This document shows, in pieces, positions 5,217 to 22,213 of a stretch of DNA of 27,536 nucleotides. This DNA is from a virus, in IMG/VR virus record IMGVR_UViG_3300025097_002260, positions 1 through 27,536 of that record, one strand, 5' to 3'. Every line of letters starts with the position of its first letter. Within the stretch, counting starts at the first letter, position 1. A program made the translations under genes and the position numbers. The notes under the pieces are model-generated. The model was given only the letters and a program-made list of their open reading frames with translations, was not told the origin of the DNA and searched no databases.

Positions 5217-6076
5217 GACCTTACTCCAACTTTACAATGTTCTGTTTGATTAAACTCACAAAATCTACAAGATTTCTTACTAGGTGTTGGTAGTAAATTA
5301 TCTGTTGTATGACTACCATCATCATTAAAACCCTCATCAATAAATTTTGAAAGTTTTCTCGCTACCTTATTCATTGACACAGTTCCACTCGCAGGTGAAA
5401 ATTTCTGAACTCTTTTCTGTGGCCAATCTACATTTTCATATAATTTTCTCTTCACTATGAAATATTCTACTTCAATTTGTTCAATAGGATAATTATGTTG
5501 TTTTGAATAAAATTGTTTATACAACAGTAACTGTTGTGTTTTATTCTCATCAGCTTTCATCCATTTGTTCCAACCCTTTGTCGATGTTTTTATATCATAT
5601 ATTTTAATCACATCTCCAATTGTATCCTTAATAACAATATCAATATAACCAACCCATCTTAAATTTTTCTGTAAATCTAGTTCGACTGGAACTTCACAGC
5701 CAATTAATTCATAACCTTTTTTGCTGAAATACTCACCTCGTCTTTTCTTAAAGAAATCAAGAATGTCACAACCATCTTGGAAGAACTCTTGTAATTGTTC
5801 TTTTGTACATGGATCTTTTCCATATGTTTCTTTATCTTTATTGAATACCTCAATCATTTTCTCTTGTAATGTTCGTTCTAAATTAAGTTGATTAGCTCTC
5901 TTAACTGTAAACTCATACATAACATTAAGATACTTTTGTAATGTTTCATGCATTGCTGTTCCAAACAACAAATGAATACTTGGTTCTGATATTCTGTAAC
6001 CATCTATATAATTTAACTTCCATCTATGTGGACAATCAGAAAACATAGACAACTGTGAATATGATATTCTATTCAT
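5213..6076 (-). CDS. PD-(D/E)XK nuclease, RecB/Cas4-like with Fe-S-type cysteines
   Basis: A 287-residue nuclease. It opens with ISYSQLSMFSDCPHRWKLNYIDG, the 'S.SQL..F..CP..WK' entry motif of the PDDEXK_1 (RecB/AddB/Cas4) family. GYIDIVI, then IYDIKTS, supply the catalytic D...DxK residues, and QLLLYKQF is the Q-x3-Y motif. A C-terminal SCRFCEFNQTEHC cluster together with the N-terminal cysteine suggests the 4Fe-4S cluster seen in Cas4/AddB. An ATG 21 bases upstream (6097) is possible, but ATG 6076 follows AAGGA at good spacing and is preferred. Likely acts on DNA ends in recombination or host DNA degradation. No cas genes are nearby. Confidence 0.88.
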   Translation of the reverse strand: MNRISYSQLSMFSDCPHRWKLNYIDGYRISEPSIHLLFGTAMHETLQKYLNVMYEFTVKRANQLNLERTLQEKMIEVFNKDKETYGKDPCTKEQLQEFFQDGCDILDFFKKRRGEYFSKKGYELIGCEVPVELDLQKNLRWVGYIDIVIKDTIGDVIKIYDIKTSTKGWNKWMKADENKTQQLLLYKQFYSKQHNYPIEQIEVEYFIVKRKLYENVDWPQKRVQKFSPASGTVSMNKVARKLSKFIDEGFNDDGSHTTDNLLPTPSKKSCRFCEFNQTEHCKVGVRS

Positions 6077-6827
6077 AAAAATCCTTTTTCTCTTCAACTA
6101 TAATTTCTTCTATCTCTGGAACATATTCTTTTGGATTCTTTGGGTATGGTTTCTGTAGATGTTTAAGATTTGACATAATCTTTTTCTTCTCCCCTTTAGT
6201 TCCTAATAAATAAAAGAAACGATGTTTTCTTGGTTCTTTTCTTCTCCAAAATGTGTGTCCTATTCTGCTCTTCAGATGTTCTAAATTACCAGAACCAAAC
6301 ATAACAAATACAGTTCTTGAATGTATCCACTTACCACCAGGTTCTAATTTGATTCCATAATTATCCATAATTCCTAAATTAGTTCCCTGATAAACCCAAT
6401 TGGTAGCTTGATATATACCACCAATGTGTTCTTGACCAGGATCTGCATATGATATTAGAACTTTTATATCTGGAGCATTTTGTTTCAGCCACTTAAATGT
6501 TTTAGATATAGAAATACTTTCCATATTTTTACCATATTCTTCATATATGAATAATCTTGTTAACTCCAACGCTTCCTTCGCCTGTAACATTGGTGAAATA
6601 GAAGAAGCTGCTTTAGCTCCAACTGGATATCCATAAACAGCAACACCAGCTAACTTTTCATCTTTTTCATCAAAAAAACTATGTTCGTTATCCATCTCAT
6701 AAAAAATACCCAACGCATAACGACAACTAGTCCAAGCATGACTATAATGATTCTTAACAATCATATCTTTAGCTATCTTCTTCGATATCTCACGAATGGT
6801 TATTTTGGTTTTGTCTACTTTCCCCAT
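6069..6827 (-). CDS. Mom-like DNA modification protein (GNAT fold), copy 1
   Basis: A 252-residue protein resembling the Mom family of phage Mu, which converts adenine to N6-(methylcarbamoyl)adenine using a GNAT-type fold. Recognisable blocks are KNHYSH (25-30), LAGVAVYGYP (59-68), ALELTRLFI (86-94), KTFKWLKQ (109-116) and SYADPGQEHIGGIYQATNW (126-144). These blocks recur in the second copy at 19267-19896. The roughly 90-residue C-terminal extension is lysine-rich and lacks a counterpart in the second copy. It sits directly after an Nmad1-like gene, a nucleotide-modification family, which supports a DNA-modification role. The exact adduct is not predictable from sequence. Confidence 0.75.
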   Translation of the reverse strand: MGKVDKTKITIREISKKIAKDMIVKNHYSHAWTSCRYALGIFYEMDNEHSFFDEKDEKLAGVAVYGYPVGAKAASSISPMLQAKEALELTRLFIYEEYGKNMESISISKTFKWLKQNAPDIKVLISYADPGQEHIGGIYQATNWVYQGTNLGIMDNYGIKLEPGGKWIHSRTVFVMFGSGNLEHLKSRIGHTFWRRKEPRKHRFFYLLGTKGEKKKIMSNLKHLQKPYPKNPKEYVPEIEEIIVEEKKDFYE

Positions 6828-15090: not shown

Positions 15091-16092
15091 TTATTCTCCA
15101 CATATTGTTTCTATTAATTTATGACAAACCCTATAAGGGTCACAATTAGCTGATGGTCTTCGGTCTTCTAAATAACCATTACCATCTTTACTTACTTGCC
15201 AAGGTACTCTAATTGAAGCACCTCTATCTGACACGCCCCATCTAAACTCTGTAATAGGACAAGTTTCGTGTAAACCTGTTAATCTCTTTTCATTACCATA
15301 ACCATAAACTTTTATATGTTCATCATGTTTATATTCTAAATTTTTAATGGCTTCATGGATAACCATATCACCACCATCTTCTCTCATTGCTTTTGTAGAA
15401 AAGTTTGTATGAGCACCAGCTCCATTCCAATCTCCAGCAACAGGTTTTGGATTTAATGAAACTGTTAACCCATATCTTGCAGTAATCTTTTCTAATAACC
15501 AACGAGCAACCCACAAGTCATCTGACATTATAAGAGTATCTCCAGCACCAATTTGATATTCCCATTGACCAAGCATCACTTCAGAATTGATTCCTACAAT
15601 ATGAATATCAGCTTTAATACAAGCATCCATATGTTCACGAGCTATATTTTCACCAATATTTCTACCACAATAATAATCGCCTTGTGGTGCAGGTTCACCA
15701 TCTTCCCAACCTAAAGGATTGCCATTTTTATACAAAGTATATTCTTGTTCAAATCCTACCCAAGCATCATCATCCCTATGTTCTGATGATAACTCTTCTA
15801 ATACAAAACGATGATTTGTTTCATGTGGTGTGTCATCTGTATTCCAAACTTCACATAAAACTAAATAAGAATATAGATTTTCTAATGGACTTTCATATAG
15901 TTTAACGGGTTTTAAAACACAATCAGAATTATCACCAGGTGCTTGATTAGTTGATGAACCATCAAAACCCCAAATTGGACAACCAGATGGACCTGATACA
16001 CTCCTATCAAATTCTTTTACAATTTTTGTTTTACTACGCAACTGAGCCGTTGGTTCAGTACCATCTATCCATATGTATTCTAATTTAATCAT
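15091..16092 (-). CDS. Type II glutamine synthetase (GSII)
   Basis: A 333-residue enzyme of the GSII (eukaryote-like, GlnII) class, which makes glutamine from glutamate, ammonia and ATP. The beta-grasp N-terminus has EYIWIDG and LRSKT, followed by PIWGFDGSSTNQAPGDNSDC. The catalytic domain has WVGFEQEYTLYK, EVMLGQWEYQIG, KPVAGDWNGAGAHTNFSTKA, LTGLHETCPITEFRWGVSDR and YLEDRRPSANCDPY, covering metal-binding glutamates, ATP-site and C-terminal signature. It is full-length for the class and unlike the longer GSI of most bacteria. It overlaps the protease stop (ATGA) and has AGGAGAAAT before the ATG. As a phage gene it would boost nitrogen assimilation. Confidence 0.95.
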   Translation of the reverse strand: MIKLEYIWIDGTEPTAQLRSKTKIVKEFDRSVSGPSGCPIWGFDGSSTNQAPGDNSDCVLKPVKLYESPLENLYSYLVLCEVWNTDDTPHETNHRFVLEELSSEHRDDDAWVGFEQEYTLYKNGNPLGWEDGEPAPQGDYYCGRNIGENIAREHMDACIKADIHIVGINSEVMLGQWEYQIGAGDTLIMSDDLWVARWLLEKITARYGLTVSLNPKPVAGDWNGAGAHTNFSTKAMREDGGDMVIHEAIKNLEYKHDEHIKVYGYGNEKRLTGLHETCPITEFRWGVSDRGASIRVPWQVSKDGNGYLEDRRPSANCDPYRVCHKLIETICGE

Positions 16093-17216
16093 TTTATTTC
16101 TCCTATGTTCAACTCTTGAAGTCTTCTCTCAACTTCTAATTGTGGAAAATTATCTTTCAACCAGATGACTGCTGAATTAAAGTCAAGTCCTAATATCCAA
16201 TTTATAAAAACAATTACATCTAATACATTCAACATTCCATCTTCATTACAATTTGATGCTATATATTCTTCTTCTGTTGGATTTGATAAATTGAGAATAA
16301 AGTTAATCATAACAACAACATCCATTATATTTAACTCTCCATCAAAATTGGTATCACCTAAAACTACATCAATAGGTGGTTCAGGTTCTCCAATATAACC
16401 AAAAAACCAAGGTAACTGTGTATAAATTCTTGAATATACACCAGGATAATTAGCTTCGGCACATCCGTATCCCCAACTGACAATGCCTATCAATTCATAT
16501 TCACCATCAGAATTAGTCATGATAAGTGGACCACCTGAATCACCTTGGCAACTGTCTTCACCACCATTACCATCACCAGCACAAACCATATTATCAGTAA
16601 TATCACTATTAGAATAATTTCCACAACCATCATCAATTGGTACATCTACTTCAAGTAACACATTAGACGAAGGGCCTCCGCTATATATTGCTCCCCAACC
16701 CATAGTTGTTGACATTACAGGTTCTTCGTCGTGTGAATCATCTGTAACTAATTGTATTGATTCAAACTCTGCAACTGGTTGTGATAAATGAACAAGAGCA
16801 TAATCATTGTTCAATGACCCACCATTGTAATTTGGATGAACAATTATCTGATCTGGATATCTTATTACTGCCCCTGTTGTTCCATTTACATTATGTAATC
16901 CAACTCTAACTCTAAACGAATTAGTATTCTCTCCTGACATACAATGAGCTGCTGTCACAACCCAATCTTCTCTAACTAATGAACCACCACAAAAATGCCA
17001 TCCACTGTTAGTTTGAACTGATACCATAAATGGATACTTACAATCAGGACACGCTGGGTCTACTTCTGTTCCACCTACAATCCTTGGCCATGGTAAGTCA
17101 CCTGGAATTGTTGTTTGTTGTTCCATAGACCTTGTAAACAACTCATCTTGTGGTTGAGTTATATCTTGATTACAACCAAATAATACTAATAACATCATTA
17201 AAAATAATTTTTTCAT
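16089..17216 (-). CDS. Trypsin-like serine protease, predicted lipoprotein with C-terminal dockerin-like repeats
   Basis: A 375-residue secreted S1 protease. The signal peptide KKLFLMMLLVLFGC has a lipobox ending at Cys15. The mature domain begins RIVGG (R45-I46), consistent with zymogen cleavage. The catalytic triad is H91 (VTAAHC), D138 (NDYALVHL) and S227 (GDSGGP). D221 six residues before the serine and glycines in SWGYG and YPGVY predict cleavage after Arg/Lys. Residues about 287-345 hold two dockerin-like calcium repeats, DTNFDGELNIMDVVVMINFI and CNEDGMLNVLDVIVFINWIL. Such architecture is typical of free-living bacteria, rare in phages. It is tightly coupled to the synthetase and RNR genes, so it is a resident gene rather than a loose insertion. 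Confidence 0.9.
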   Translation of the reverse strand: MKKLFLMMLLVLFGCNQDITQPQDELFTRSMEQQTTIPGDLPWPRIVGGTEVDPACPDCKYPFMVSVQTNSGWHFCGGSLVREDWVVTAAHCMSGENTNSFRVRVGLHNVNGTTGAVIRYPDQIIVHPNYNGGSLNNDYALVHLSQPVAEFESIQLVTDDSHDEEPVMSTTMGWGAIYSGGPSSNVLLEVDVPIDDGCGNYSNSDITDNMVCAGDGNGGEDSCQGDSGGPLIMTNSDGEYELIGIVSWGYGCAEANYPGVYSRIYTQLPWFFGYIGEPEPPIDVVLGDTNFDGELNIMDVVVMINFILNLSNPTEEEYIASNCNEDGMLNVLDVIVFINWILGLDFNSAVIWLKDNFPQLEVERRLQELNIGEIK

Positions 17217-17217
17217 T

Positions 17218-19230
17218 TTAGTTCTCCACTAATTCTTCATTTGTTTCTATGAAATCAATTTCACAAGTGTCATTGTTACAAAACTTGTCTACAATTGCTT
17301 CATTACCTTTTACTTGTCTAAATGATAAAAATTTTAATTTACTAACCATCTTATCATATTCTTCTTTTGTTATTTCTTCATAAGGCATTTGTCTGTATGC
17401 CCCCTGTTCAAATTTAGGTAATAACGATATACCCTTTAATTGGTATTGAAAATAATTGAGAGCATATGAAATTTGATTACCTTCAGTCTTTGGATCAAAT
17501 GTAACTGTACAACTGACTTGATTATCTGCCCAATACTTTTGCATAAAGGCAGCTAATGACATCTGTTCCCACATTGGAACTTCATTAATTGTTCTGACAC
17601 CTTCACCAACATCAACAGGAACTTCTACAACCACAGTAGTATTTTTACTACCAAATGCGGGTTCTATATGATAACCAGCCTTTTCCAATGGTTTAATCAA
17701 TGTTGAATTAATTGATAATCTGATTCTTCTAATATAAAATCGTGATTCAGGATAATGTAATCCTGGTGTAGCTCCTGCTAACAAACTTACAGTTCCTGAT
17801 GGTTTTACACTTGTGGTTTTAATACTACGAGGAACAGCTAACCAATCCGAATATAACTTATCATAATCTTGTATAGAATCATATCCACGCTTTAACCAAC
17901 ATTTTAATTTATGTAATCCTCTATCTGTAATGAATTGAGCTATTCCACTCACAGAACAACCTATCCGTCTATTTCTTAACATAACTCTATTAGTTTCAGA
18001 CCAATGTGTTTTTCCTAATGTAACTGTTTTAGCATATAAATAAGCATATTTTAATGTCTTAATATAATCTTCTAAATCTTCATGGTTATTTGGAAATGTT
18101 TCTACAAGACAACATAATTCATATGATTCCAATGATTGTTCAAGACAAGGATTTCCACCAGCAACTCTATGATCTTTCTTATCTCTACCATTTCTCATAC
18201 GAGAATAATCTTGCATATTTTCTAACCAAGCAAATCCTGGTTCACCATTATCATTGATTCGTTCTGCTGCTTGTGTATAATCCATACCAAGTTCGGCAAA
18301 GATTGAATTATTTGATGTCCAACCATATGATTCTCTATGTGGATTCTTTTTATAATTCTTTAAATTAATATACTCATCAGATGTTGAATCACCAAATACA
18401 ATTTCTGCTGTTCTTCTGACATTACCAGCAACTACACACTTTCCAATCAAATTCATAATATCTACAATTGTCGTTATCGATATTGGTTCACCTATATTTT
18501 TATCCAAAACATCTCTAATCAATTTCAAAACTTCTTTAAGTGGTTCATGTCCACTTGACACTCCACCAAAACCTTTGATTGGTTCACCGGCTGCTCGTAT
18601 CTTTGAATAATCAAAATCAACTGGTGATACTCCAAGAAAATAACTATCCAATAATCTCCTTAATGCTTCAACCCAACCTTCACGAGTATCTGGTATAACA
18701 TACAATTCAGTATCTCTATCTGATTTTGGCCCTCTTATTATAAATGAATCAGCACCTTTTGTATCAAACCCAACACCAACCCCAACCATGCTCGCATCCA
18801 TTAAAAATGTAAATGGTTTAGCCAAATCTTCTTTGAGATTTACTGTTGATACAAACGCACAATTGTTGAGGGCGGCATATAATCCTTTTTCTTCTGTGAT
18901 TGATGTTCCCATCGCCCACAGACCGCGTCCAGGAGGCAAGAATTTCATATTAAAAATTCGGTCATACATCTCCTGTGCTGACCTCTGTGATTGCCACGCA
19001 TTCCACCCTAAATCATATCTCTCAATGTGGTGTTTCTGCATATTGTAAGTTCCTTCTACAACACGACGAACTGTCTCCCACCACATCTCATTCTTCCCAT
19101 CCTCTTTAATACGAGAATAAGTTCTCATATAAACAAGTTCACCCAATCCATTAAATCCAAATGGTGATCTCTTTCTCTTATATTGATCTATGAAATTGTC
19201 TGATAAACTAAATTTTTTAAACTCTAACAT
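17218..19230 (-). CDS. nrdJ: Class II (adenosylcobalamin-dependent) ribonucleotide reductase
   Basis: A 670-residue monomeric RNR of the Lactobacillus leichmannii RTPR type, reducing ribonucleoside triphosphates with adenosylcobalamin. Marks are FLPPGRGLWAMGT, NNCAFVST (first redox Cys), VAGNVRRTAEI, NPCLEQSLESYELCCL (thiyl-radical Cys and second redox Cys), KPSGTVSLLAGATPGLHY and the C-terminal pair FCNNDTC for external reduction. No separate radical-generating subunit is needed. A frame start nine codons upstream (19257) lacks a ribosome site; ATG 19230 follows TAGGAG and is chosen. Supplies dNTPs for replication. It depends on host cobalamin. Confidence 0.95.
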   Translation of the reverse strand: MLEFKKFSLSDNFIDQYKRKRSPFGFNGLGELVYMRTYSRIKEDGKNEMWWETVRRVVEGTYNMQKHHIERYDLGWNAWQSQRSAQEMYDRIFNMKFLPPGRGLWAMGTSITEEKGLYAALNNCAFVSTVNLKEDLAKPFTFLMDASMVGVGVGFDTKGADSFIIRGPKSDRDTELYVIPDTREGWVEALRRLLDSYFLGVSPVDFDYSKIRAAGEPIKGFGGVSSGHEPLKEVLKLIRDVLDKNIGEPISITTIVDIMNLIGKCVVAGNVRRTAEIVFGDSTSDEYINLKNYKKNPHRESYGWTSNNSIFAELGMDYTQAAERINDNGEPGFAWLENMQDYSRMRNGRDKKDHRVAGGNPCLEQSLESYELCCLVETFPNNHEDLEDYIKTLKYAYLYAKTVTLGKTHWSETNRVMLRNRRIGCSVSGIAQFITDRGLHKLKCWLKRGYDSIQDYDKLYSDWLAVPRSIKTTSVKPSGTVSLLAGATPGLHYPESRFYIRRIRLSINSTLIKPLEKAGYHIEPAFGSKNTTVVVEVPVDVGEGVRTINEVPMWEQMSLAAFMQKYWADNQVSCTVTFDPKTEGNQISYALNYFQYQLKGISLLPKFEQGAYRQMPYEEITKEEYDKMVSKLKFLSFRQVKGNEAIVDKFCNNDTCEIDFIETNEELVEN

Positions 19231-19266
19231 TTTTATAACTCCTACTATTACGAACATCTATAAATA

Positions 19267-19896
19267 TCATTTCATCAACTTCTTCTTTATTTTTTTATTT
19301 AAATAATAAACATAAATGTTCTTTGGTTTTGTATCAACATAATACATATCATCTTCAGATGAATCCCACCAACCATGACCTTCTTTGTTTTCCCATCTTC
19401 TTTTTAATTCTCTACCATATGGTTTTATTTTTTGATTCATGGAACGAGCATGATATTTTTTACCATCAACCATTAAAATTCTACCACCACCACTTTGTCC
19501 TAAATGATGAAAATTAGAAGCTTTGTATATAACACCTTCGTGTCCTTGTTCTAAATCAGCATAAGATAAAATAACTTCTATATCCGTATTTTTCTTTATC
19601 CACCTCAATGTCTTTCCAATAAAATAACTTTCCGTATTTGTAGGTGTATCATCTATACAACATAATCTTCGTAATTCCCAACATCTTAAAGGATTATCAG
19701 GATTATATTTTGCAGCTGTAGATTTCATGGATGGTAACGCATATATCATAGCACCAATCATTCTCATATCATCAAACAAAGCAAAACATTGTGTTTGTTG
19801 AATACCGTTTGTATCATGTGAATAGTGCCATTTATGTATGAAAGATTGTATTACCTTTCTTTCAACTGGTTCTACTATGAAATCAGTTACTTTCAA
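19267..19896 (-). CDS. Mom-like DNA modification protein, copy 2, TTG start
   Basis: A 209-residue Mom-family protein with the same blocks as the copy at 6069-6827: KWHYSH (22-27), MIGAMIYALP (46-55), CWELRRLC (72-79), KTLRWIKKN (95-103) and SYADLEQGHEGVIYKASNF (111-129). It lacks the long C-terminal tail of copy 1. The only start between an in-frame TAG upstream and the first ATG far inside the domain is TTG at 19896, with AGAG five bases before; it overlaps a 34-codon frame by 14 bases. Probable GNAT-fold base-modifying enzyme; the two copies may differ in sequence context or the group added. Confidence 0.75.
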   Translation of the reverse strand: MKVTDFIVEPVERKVIQSFIHKWHYSHDTNGIQQTQCFALFDDMRMIGAMIYALPSMKSTAAKYNPDNPLRCWELRRLCCIDDTPTNTESYFIGKTLRWIKKNTDIEVILSYADLEQGHEGVIYKASNFHHLGQSGGGRILMVDGKKYHARSMNQKIKPYGRELKRRWENKEGHGWWDSSEDDMYYVDTKPKNIYVYYLNKKIKKKLMK

Positions 19897-20242: not shown

Positions 20243-20722
20243 TTAAGATGTAATATCTTCATCACTCTTCATTAAATCATCATATTTACTTGCTAACATC
20301 TTTTTCATTAAATTATCTCTATTATCAATCTTATTCTGTGTCTCTTTACCACCTACACTTGTAGATTCATATATCTCAACAGCACCTGTGTTTGTGTTTA
20401 TCTTCGCTGGAAATGTTATACCATCAGGTCCAAATCTGTTTTTAATAATATGAAATCTACCAGTATTACCAATCTTATCTTCTACTTTCCTACTTAATGA
20501 AACTACAAAATCTGCTGTCATAATCTTTTGATATGACTCCGCTATCTTTTGTGCTTCGATTATATCTTCATCAAGTGCTGAATTGTGTGAATATACACCA
20601 TTAGCAAAAAACATATGCGTATCCTCAACTGTAATATCAACAGTATCTTCTTCACCAACTAATTCAATTGAAACAATTTCATCCATTACAAAATCTTCTG
20701 GATTTAAGTTATGCATTTTCAT
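20243..20722 (-). CDS. 41: gp41 replicative helicase, C-terminal half: C-intein plus C-extein
   Basis: A 159-residue protein. Residues 1-47 are a C-intein: DEIVSIELVGEEDTVDITVE, then HMFFANGVYSHN, the block F/G with the terminal His-Asn. Serine 48 (codon 20579-20581) is the +1 extein nucleophile, followed by SALDEDIIEAQKIAESYQKI and ADFVVSLSRKVEDKIG, the C-terminal end of DnaB/gp41 helicases, 112 residues. The C-intein resembles the known gp41 split inteins of marine phage sequences. The start at 20722 follows AAGGAA at 7-base spacing and overlaps the nuclease gene by 14 bases; ATG 20716 is an alternative. Splicing with the product at 20909-22213 would give a helicase of about 457 residues. 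Confidence 0.92.
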   Translation of the reverse strand: MKMHNLNPEDFVMDEIVSIELVGEEDTVDITVEDTHMFFANGVYSHNSALDEDIIEAQKIAESYQKIMTADFVVSLSRKVEDKIGNTGRFHIIKNRFGPDGITFPAKINTNTGAVEIYESTSVGGKETQNKIDNRDNLMKKMLASKYDDLMKSDEDITS

Positions 20723-21178
20723 TTATAAATTCCTTACATTTTTTGATTACATTATTCGTATCAGTTTTATATTCAATATCATTTATTCGTAAAATTTTAT
20801 ATCCCTTACTTTCCAAAATAATATCTCTCTGACCATCAAGATTTTCATCGTGCCAATATTCACAATCAAATTCAATTATAGAATTTCCACACTTAAAATC
20901 TGGCATTATTATTTCTTTGTAAATAATTTATCACCAACTTTTAATCCCGTAGATACTGATTTTAATTTCCCATACATAATCGGTAAATCGTGGTCGGCTG
21001 AAATGGTTATCTCTTTTCCTGATTTTAATTTAACTTTATATACTGGTTGTTTCTCAACTGGAAAAACTTTAGTTACTTTTTTATATCCAAGATGAGTTAA
21101 AATTTCATCACCTTCTTTTATTTTACCAATTTCTATTTTACCATTTTCAGTTTCTACTTTATCAGTTAAAATGTGGCA
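20582..21178 (-). mobile_element. Split intein with embedded free-standing endonuclease (fractured gene insert)
   Basis: From the N-intein's first Cys codon (21176-21178) to the C-intein's final Asn codon (20582-20584), about 600 bases hold an 89-residue N-intein, a 65-codon nuclease gene and a 47-residue C-intein. This is the organisation called a fractured gene, previously described for gp41 in marine environmental sequences. Splice junctions are R345/C346 upstream and N/S48 downstream. The element presumably derives from an intein with homing endonuclease that broke at the nuclease. Confidence 0.88.
20709..20906 (-). CDS. Minimal Vsr-like endonuclease between the split intein halves
   Basis: A 65-residue protein starting MPDFKCGNSIIEFDCEYWHD, then DGQRDIILESKGYKILRIND. 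This is the Vsr/DUF559-type PD-(D/E)XK core: P-D, then I-E-F-D and Y-W-H, then the 'RD..L...GY.ILRI' block. It corresponds to the new homing endonuclease family reported in fractured intein genes, but only the catalytic part is present and no DNA-recognition domain is visible, so it may be a remnant or a partner-dependent nuclease. The start follows the helicase half's TAA by 2 bases, and the stop overlaps the C-half start by 14. Confidence 0.75.
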   Translation of the reverse strand: MPDFKCGNSIIEFDCEYWHDENLDGQRDIILESKGYKILRINDIEYKTDTNNVIKKCKEFINENA

Positions 21179-22213
21179 TCGATTTGCTTGTGAAGCTGTC
21201 CAAATTGGAATATCAAACTCACCAGCTAATCCCCTCAAATCTTCATATATGTTACCAAGAGCATGTCTGACTTCCTTTGCATTACTAGTATCTTTAAGAA
21301 TATCAGCATAATCAACTACAACCATATCGAAATCTTTTCCCATCATTCGTAGTTTCTGTAAATGAGCTGATATCGTATTTACTGATGCGGTCTTTGTTGG
21401 AAAATATTTAACAATAAGTTCACCTTCTATATTTTCAATCTTTTGTTTTACTTCATCTTTGTGATATTTTAAATTCTGATTCGCTATCCCTGTAAATACA
21501 CTATCGTATCTTAAACCAACATACGCTTCATTTAATTCTAATGTATAATGAACAATATTTGAACCCCGTTTCATTGAACCAGCCGCAAGTGCACAAAGAA
21601 TCCAAGTTTTACCAATACCAGCTGGTGCTACAATAACACCCAACTCTCCACCCGCCAATCCACCCTGTATCAATTCATTCATAACATCCCAAGGTGTTTC
21701 AACTGTGCTACGAGCCATCTCTGAATATCTAACCTCTATATCATCAATATATTCATGTCCAATATTTCTTTCAGTTCCAGCTCTTAAAGCATTGTCAACT
21801 AATTGTTTGATGGTATCAAAATCACCTTTGTTTTCAAGTATCTCAACTGATTCGATAATAGCATTTTTTAATGTCTGATTCTTAAAGAAATTAAGTGCTT
21901 GGTCTTTGATAAATTCTAAATCCGGAGCTTCTGAATATCTAACTACTTCTTTAAGTGTTTCAATGATTGTTATTTTCAGAATATCGTTATGAACTTCACT
22001 TACCTTTACTTTAAATACATCTAATGTTATTGGTTGTTTATATTCGTTATAATATAATTTACATTCTTTAGCTATCCATTTCAAACTATCATTATCAAAA
22101 TGACTCTCATCAAATATATCATAGATTTGTGCTATGAAATTAGTATCAGCCATTAAAGATGATAATATCTTAATCTGAAATGTGTATCCGAAAGTGCTTA
22201 AATTATCTGTCAA
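20909..22213 (-). CDS. 41: gp41 replicative helicase, N-terminal half: N-extein plus N-intein, TTG start
   Basis: A 434-residue protein. The N-extein (1-345) is a DnaB-family helicase: an N-terminal domain (FGYTFQIKILSSLMAD), Walker A APAGIGKT (196-203), Walker B DMVVVDYAD (296-304) and the arginine-containing IPIWTASQANR. Right after R345 an N-intein begins at C346 (CHILTDKVETENG), with block B-like LKSGKEITISADHDLP and the end GLKVGDKLFTKK, 89 residues. The polypeptide stops there; the rest of the helicase is encoded separately. The start is TTG at 22213: an in-frame TAA lies just upstream, the first ATG would remove the conserved FGYTFQ block, and TTGA overlaps the RNase H stop. Unwinds DNA at the fork once spliced. 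Confidence 0.93.
   Translation of the reverse strand: MTDNLSTFGYTFQIKILSSLMADTNFIAQIYDIFDESHFDNDSLKWIAKECKLYYNEYKQPITLDVFKVKVSEVHNDILKITIIETLKEVVRYSEAPDLEFIKDQALNFFKNQTLKNAIIESVEILENKGDFDTIKQLVDNALRAGTERNIGHEYIDDIEVRYSEMARSTVETPWDVMNELIQGGLAGGELGVIVAPAGIGKTWILCALAAGSMKRGSNIVHYTLELNEAYVGLRYDSVFTGIANQNLKYHKDEVKQKIENIEGELIVKYFPTKTASVNTISAHLQKLRMMGKDFDMVVVDYADILKDTSNAKEVRHALGNIYEDLRGLAGEFDIPIWTASQANRCHILTDKVETENGKIEIGKIKEGDEILTHLGYKKVTKVFPVEKQPVYKVKLKSGKEITISADHDLPIMYGKLKSVSTGLKVGDKLFTKK

What the first reader, a model, noticed from the sequence alone, without database searches (positions are those of the whole stretch)
20243..22213. Replicative helicase encoded in two pieces by a split intein
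Sequence: the gp41 helicase stops after an 89-residue N-intein beginning at C346; a separate gene begins with a 47-residue C-intein ending HN, then Ser+1 and the last 112 helicase residues. The intervening 186 bases carry a nuclease gene. Established: fractured gp41 genes with naturally split inteins are known from marine metagenomes (gp41-1, gp41-8 type). Inference: an essential enzyme is made only by trans-splicing, so fork assembly depends on two polypeptides finding each other, and this intein may be a new, fast-splicing variant.
Basis: partly seen in the sequence, partly recalled or inferred. Interest (0 to 1): 0.9.

Follow-up and report, generated by a model that had tools for sequence, protein, structure and literature searches.

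The report
Split-intein helicase with decayed homing nuclease
This marine phage makes its replicative helicase as two proteins that a split intein almost certainly welds together; the arrangement is a known kind, but here the selfish nuclease that goes with it has mostly been deleted and the gene has stayed broken.

Summary
A DnaB/gp41-type helicase ends after an 89-residue N-intein (C346 onward). A second gene starts with a 47-residue C-intein ending HN, then the last 112 helicase residues, beginning with Ser+1. Relatives without the intein read straight through the site (TASQANR|SALDED), and identical copies occur in other metagenome assemblies.

This is a new member of the known 'fractured gene' class (Dassa 2009; gp41-1/gp41-8 type), not a new kind of system.

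Two corrections or additions:
(1) The 'nuclease gene' in the gap is a remnant. A relative (L035) has a full 326-aa EDxHD/Vsr-type nuclease. The window keeps only the last 65 codons; the repeat region and the first conserved Glu are gone.
(2) The intein has moved between phages: it is 87-100% identical where helicases are only 50-73% identical and synonymous sites are near or at saturation.

Among 65 viral loci (about 30 distinct), wherever both ends could be checked in close relatives the intein is at this site and split. The nuclease state changed at least six times, and no nuclease-less lineage is re-fused. Best explanation: an obligate trans-splicing helicase stranded after loss of its homing nuclease. 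Splicing and its speed were not tested.

The parts
21179..22213 (-). Helicase N-extein, 345 aa (TTG start; Walker A and B; ends TASQANR)
20912..21178 (-). N-intein, 89 aa, starts Cys1; stop codon 20909-20911
20709..20906 (-). 65-codon C-terminal remnant of an EDxHD/Vsr-type homing endonuclease (DUF559 match); lacks the repeat region and the first conserved Glu; overlaps the C-half gene by 14 bp
20731..20735 (-). Probable ribosome-binding site (AAGGA) of the C-half gene, inside the nuclease remnant
   Evidence: read from sequence; function inferred
20582..20722 (-). C-intein, 47 aa, ends His-Asn
20246..20581 (-). Helicase C-extein, 112 aa, starts with Ser+1; stop codon 20243-20245

Best explanation
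The phage's gp41/DnaB-type replicative helicase is encoded in two genes. Each half carries half of a class 1 (Cys1/Ser+1) intein split at the usual endonuclease site. The halves associate, the intein removes itself in trans, and a 457-residue helicase results. The element originally came with a free-standing EDxHD/Vsr-type homing endonuclease gene between the halves, which would have cut intein-less helicase genes and spread the whole unit. In this lineage a deletion running from the end of the N-intein into the nuclease gene removed about 80% of that gene and left the last 65 codons, which contain the probable ribosome-binding site of the C-half gene. The element is therefore probably homing-dead here, but the helicase cannot work without splicing because the intein interrupts a conserved ATPase motif, so it is retained as an obligate splicing device. 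Shown by sequence: the split, the precise insertion site, the intein's catalytic residues, horizontal spread, the nuclease truncation. Inferred: splicing, homing activity of full-length relatives, loss of homing here.
For: Anatomy to the residue. Homology to gp41-1; Cys1, block-B His63, Asp29, His46 and Asn47 invariant in 13 relatives, Ser at +1. Empty sites at ..NR|S in relatives of 41-93% N-extein identity. Mobility: window versus L008, helicase dS 1.55 but N-intein dS 0 over 120 nt; versus L026, L035, L045, L046, N-extein dS 1.3 to saturated but intein dS 0.34-0.65. Intein and extein trees place the window differently. Full-length nuclease in L035 and 20 of 30 distinct loci; conserved E-D-x-H-D residues, of which the window keeps D, H, D but not the first E; nuclease profile matches I-Bth0305I 3r3p at E=9e-8. 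Repeated losses of the nuclease with the split kept. Near-clonal pair L099/L102 (99.9% over 3.7 kb) differs by a 1.26-kb deletion at a 10-bp repeat.
Against: No splicing was observed. The 65-codon remnant shows pairwise dN/dS of 0.18-0.30 rather than 1, so it might still do something, although selection before the deletion explains this equally well; only 5 changes fall on the window branch (3 silent, 2 not). The L008 evidence sits at a contig end.
Confidence: 0.92

Rival explanations
1. The 65-aa ORF is a functional miniature nuclease, or half of a split one, that still promotes homing or has taken another role, rather than a remnant.
For: Open frame with ATG; D, H, D of the core kept; pairwise dN/dS 0.18-0.30, significantly below neutral between window and L026 (Fisher p=0.005); a similar-sized remnant in L026.
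Against: The repeat region (probable DNA binding) and the first conserved Glu are gone; the L026 remnant has a different junction; several relatives have lost the gene completely with no visible cost; its 3' end may be kept only for the C-half ribosome-binding site.
Confidence: 0.1
2. The two halves assemble non-covalently into a working helicase without splicing, as reported for split NrdA of phage Aeh1 and split gp43 of phage 25.
For: Split phage enzymes without inteins do assemble (PMC2988022).
Against: Intein catalytic residues are invariant and the intein is under strong purifying selection (dN/dS 0.05-0.13 against four close relatives), also in lineages without a nuclease; unspliced, about 136 intein residues would remain at a conserved ATPase motif.
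Confidence: 0.04
3. Assembly or sequencing error broke a continuous gene.
For: Metagenomic contig; the intein is a shared repeat at which some contigs end (L008, L052).
Against: The same structure in other assemblies and a stop codon after the N-part in the relatives that could be read.
Confidence: 0.01

Closest known systems
Fractured genes with split inteins and free-standing EDxHD/Vsr-type endonucleases (Dassa et al. 2009, NAR 37:2560; paper not held, known from memory and from citations in PMC11766414 and PMC12350094)
   Same: Phage DNA-replication gene broken by a split intein with an endonuclease gene between the halves; same nuclease family
   Different: The nuclease here is reduced to its last 65 codons
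gp41-1 split intein (PDB 6qaz, 6riz)
   Same: gp41 helicase host, Cys1/Ser+1, near-equal N-part (88 versus 89 residues; table in PMC11766414)
   Different: 48 of 121 aligned residues identical; C-part 37 versus 47 residues; inserted elsewhere in gp41 (memory)
gp41-8 split intein (metagenomic, fast; PMC11766414 table: IntN 94, IntC 50, Cys1, Ser+1)
   Same: Similar part lengths and splice residues; from memory also inserted after ..NR with Ser at +1, hence probably the same site
Aes123/Aes508 PolB1 split intein of Aeromonas T4-like phages (PMC11923092)
   Same: The L035 nuclease matches the annotated VSR endonuclease of these phages (26.6% identity)
   Different: Other host gene; cysteine-less intein; whether that endonuclease sits between the PolB halves was not inspected

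Membership tests
Naturally split class 1 intein (gp41 type) | N-part beginning with Cys/Ser and C-part ending His-Asn followed by Ser/Thr/Cys, on separate ORFs | tested here: met
Naturally split class 1 intein (gp41 type) | Sequence homology to known HINT-fold inteins | tested here: met
   6qaz E=3.6e-19; TIGR01443 intein_Cterm above cut-off
Naturally split class 1 intein (gp41 type) | Precise insertion: removal restores an intact host protein | tested here: met
   Empty-site relatives
Naturally split class 1 intein (gp41 type) | Trans-splicing activity | not testable with these tools
   Needs co-expression of the halves
Fractured gene locus (Dassa 2009) | Conserved enzyme gene of DNA synthesis or repair broken by a split intein | tested here: met
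Fractured gene locus (Dassa 2009) | Intact free-standing endonuclease gene between the halves | tested here: not met
   Only the C-terminal 65 codons remain in the window; met in relatives such as L035 and L047. Filed as a degenerate member by descent.
EDxHD/Vsr-type homing endonuclease | Conserved E..D..H..D nuclease core | tested here: not met
   Full relatives have all four (alignment columns E291, D310, H326, D351) and match 3r3p; the window remnant lacks the first E
EDxHD/Vsr-type homing endonuclease | Cuts the intein-less allele | not testable with these tools
   Only indirect: contrast of intein and extein divergence

The most novel reading that the evidence does not exclude
The fracture is a one-way ratchet. 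After the homing nuclease is lost, which seems to have happened several times independently here, the helicase stays in two pieces for good, even when the halves are 11 bp apart or their genes overlap by a few bases. An essential viral enzyme thus becomes permanently dependent on trans-splicing with no benefit to the phage and no remaining mobility.
Probability: 0.5. Interest if true: 0.55.

Novelty: new member of a known kind. Interest (0 to 1): 0.42.

Why it matters
It gives a natural series at one exact site: no intein, split intein with full nuclease, truncated nuclease, no nuclease. This lets the life cycle of split inteins be followed and makes it testable whether being split is a passive relic or useful to the phage. 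It also adds a set of related split inteins (89/47 residues, Ser+1) to the pool from which fast protein-ligation tools have come.

Tried and rejected
Artefact: rejected by identical contigs. Intact nuclease gene: rejected by comparison with L035. Continuous intein at this site: none found in the viral census; one locus was flagged by the script (L124), but it is a stop/start overlap with the C-intein in another frame. Cellular hosts: a genome-contig scan found no relative. Isolated phages: no N-intein match. Selection on the remnant: inconclusive. Another related nuclease or intein in the window that could act in trans: none found. Dassa 2009 is not in the paper library, so statements about it rest on memory and on citing papers; one search for published work on split inteins persisting after nuclease loss gave nothing relevant, which is weak evidence of novelty. 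No structure prediction was run; sequence matches to solved inteins and to I-Bth0305I were judged enough.

Full report
What is there. The minus strand at 20243-22213 holds, in order, a 434-aa ORF (20909-22213), a 65-aa ORF (20709-20906) and a 159-aa ORF (20243-20722). The first 345 residues of the 434-aa ORF are a DnaB/gp41-like helicase up to ..PIWTASQANR; the remaining 89 are an N-intein. The 159-aa ORF is a 47-residue C-intein ending HN, then SALDEDII.. to the helicase end. Family searches agree, and the spliced 457-aa product matches phage DnaB-like helicase structures. The joined intein matches the gp41-1 intein structures at E=3.6e-19, with 48 of 121 aligned residues identical.

The insertion is precise. 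Relatives without the intein read straight through the same codon boundary (L005 and L014 at 93% N-extein identity, down to L030 at 41%). The boundary sits next to a conserved SQxNR motif. Walker A and B are in the N-half and the KNRFGPDG region in the C-half, so neither half should be a helicase on its own (inference from family knowledge).

The nuclease is a remnant. In L035 the same intein (N-part 92%, C-part 89% identical) surrounds a 326-aa gene: N-terminal KYGxExG-type repeats followed by a PD-(D/E)XK/Vsr-like domain. The profile of such genes matches the I-Bth0305I catalytic domain 3r3p at E=9e-8, and the L035 protein matches annotated VSR endonucleases of Aeromonas T4-like phages. Across the seven longer genes aligned, the conserved acidic and His residues in the nuclease part are E, D, E, H, D, as the name EDxHD implies; the window keeps D, E, H, D and lacks the first E and everything before it. 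The last codons of the remnant contain AAGGA eight bases before the C-half ATG, which may be why they remain.

The element moved between phages. Window against L008: N-extein 73% identical with dS 1.55, but the first 120 nt of the N-intein are identical. Against L026, L035, L045 and L046: N-extein identity 50-57% with dS 1.3 to saturated, but intein amino-acid identity 87-96% with dS 0.34-0.65. Purifying selection on protein cannot explain low dS. Intein and extein trees also disagree on the window's nearest relative: the intein groups with L082 (95/87), whereas the L082 helicase groups with L087 and L089 (99/96). Caveat: the L008 contig ends inside the intein.

Census. A search with 13 N-inteins found 65 viral loci. 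In the relatives where both ends of the intein could be read, the host gene is a helicase, the site is ..NR|S and the N-part ends in a stop; none is continuous. A few distant or weak hits (L139-L142) were not resolved, and some loci are cut by contig ends or are copies of one another; 30 distinct loci, the window included, went into the trees. Twenty of these have a full nuclease. The nuclease is truncated in the window and in the L026/L082 group, a pseudogene fragment in L049/L110, and absent in L045/L088 (11-bp gap), L046/L089 (92), L102 (21), L108 (63), L126 (46), and in L114 and L124, where stop and start codons overlap. Parsimony needs at least six changes of nuclease state on the extein tree. 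L099 and L102 are 99.9% identical over 3.7 kb but L102 lacks 1.26 kb of nuclease, with the junction at the repeat TTACAAAAAA: a recent deletion. The window's own deletion looks similar, but its parent allele is not in hand.

Interpretation. This is a fractured gene of the type described by Dassa et al. (2009), at what is, from memory, the gp41-8 site, but at a late stage: the homing nuclease has decayed and the split intein stays because the helicase cannot work without splicing. The general homing cycle (invasion, endonuclease decay, precise loss) is described in PMC7765530, and the difficulty of precise removal from an essential motif in PMC2988022. Whether the absence of re-fused forms reflects a ratchet, a benefit, or limited sampling is open: fewer than a dozen nuclease-less lineages cannot exclude chance.

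Is the remnant under selection? Pairwise dN/dS is 0.18-0.30, but only five changes fall on the window branch, two of them amino-acid changing, so this cannot be settled.

What is not shown. Splicing, its speed and homing were not measured. What is less ordinary is the series of nuclease losses, not the existence of the split helicase.

Noticed in passing
L026:7612-9719 and L035:7935-10048: The ribonucleotide reductase genes next door are fractured too, at VVAGNVRR|C, by another split intein with its own 316-aa DUF7487 endonuclease gene; the window's reductase (17218-19257) is intact at that site.
   Followed up: partly
L026:4983-6857: This helicase carries a second, continuous intein of about 190 residues in its Walker A motif (GIGK|C..HN|S) in addition to the split one; L049 and L064-L067 also have an interruption at that site, with nuclease-like sequence inside in L049 and L064.
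   Followed up: partly
L030:5001-6362 (also L031, L032): A related intein-free helicase has three in-frame TGA codons, at least two at positions where the window has Trp; code 4 gives an uninterrupted helicase, suggesting a UGA-recoded phage.
   Followed up: partly
L099:1-4961 versus L102:2731-6421: Two near-identical phages (99.9%) differ by deletion of the whole nuclease gene at a 10-bp direct repeat.
   Followed up: yes
19267-19896 (-): Mom-family protein (PF25680, E=2.5e-37), probably DNA modification; a second similar gene seems to lie at 6069-6827 (the L005 contig aligns to both places).
   Followed up: no
16089-17216 (-): An ORF that reads like a secreted trypsin-like serine protease (lipoprotein-like start, GDSGGP motif, dockerin-like repeats) lies between the reductase and a glutamine synthetase-like gene; unusual for a phage replication region.
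   Followed up: no
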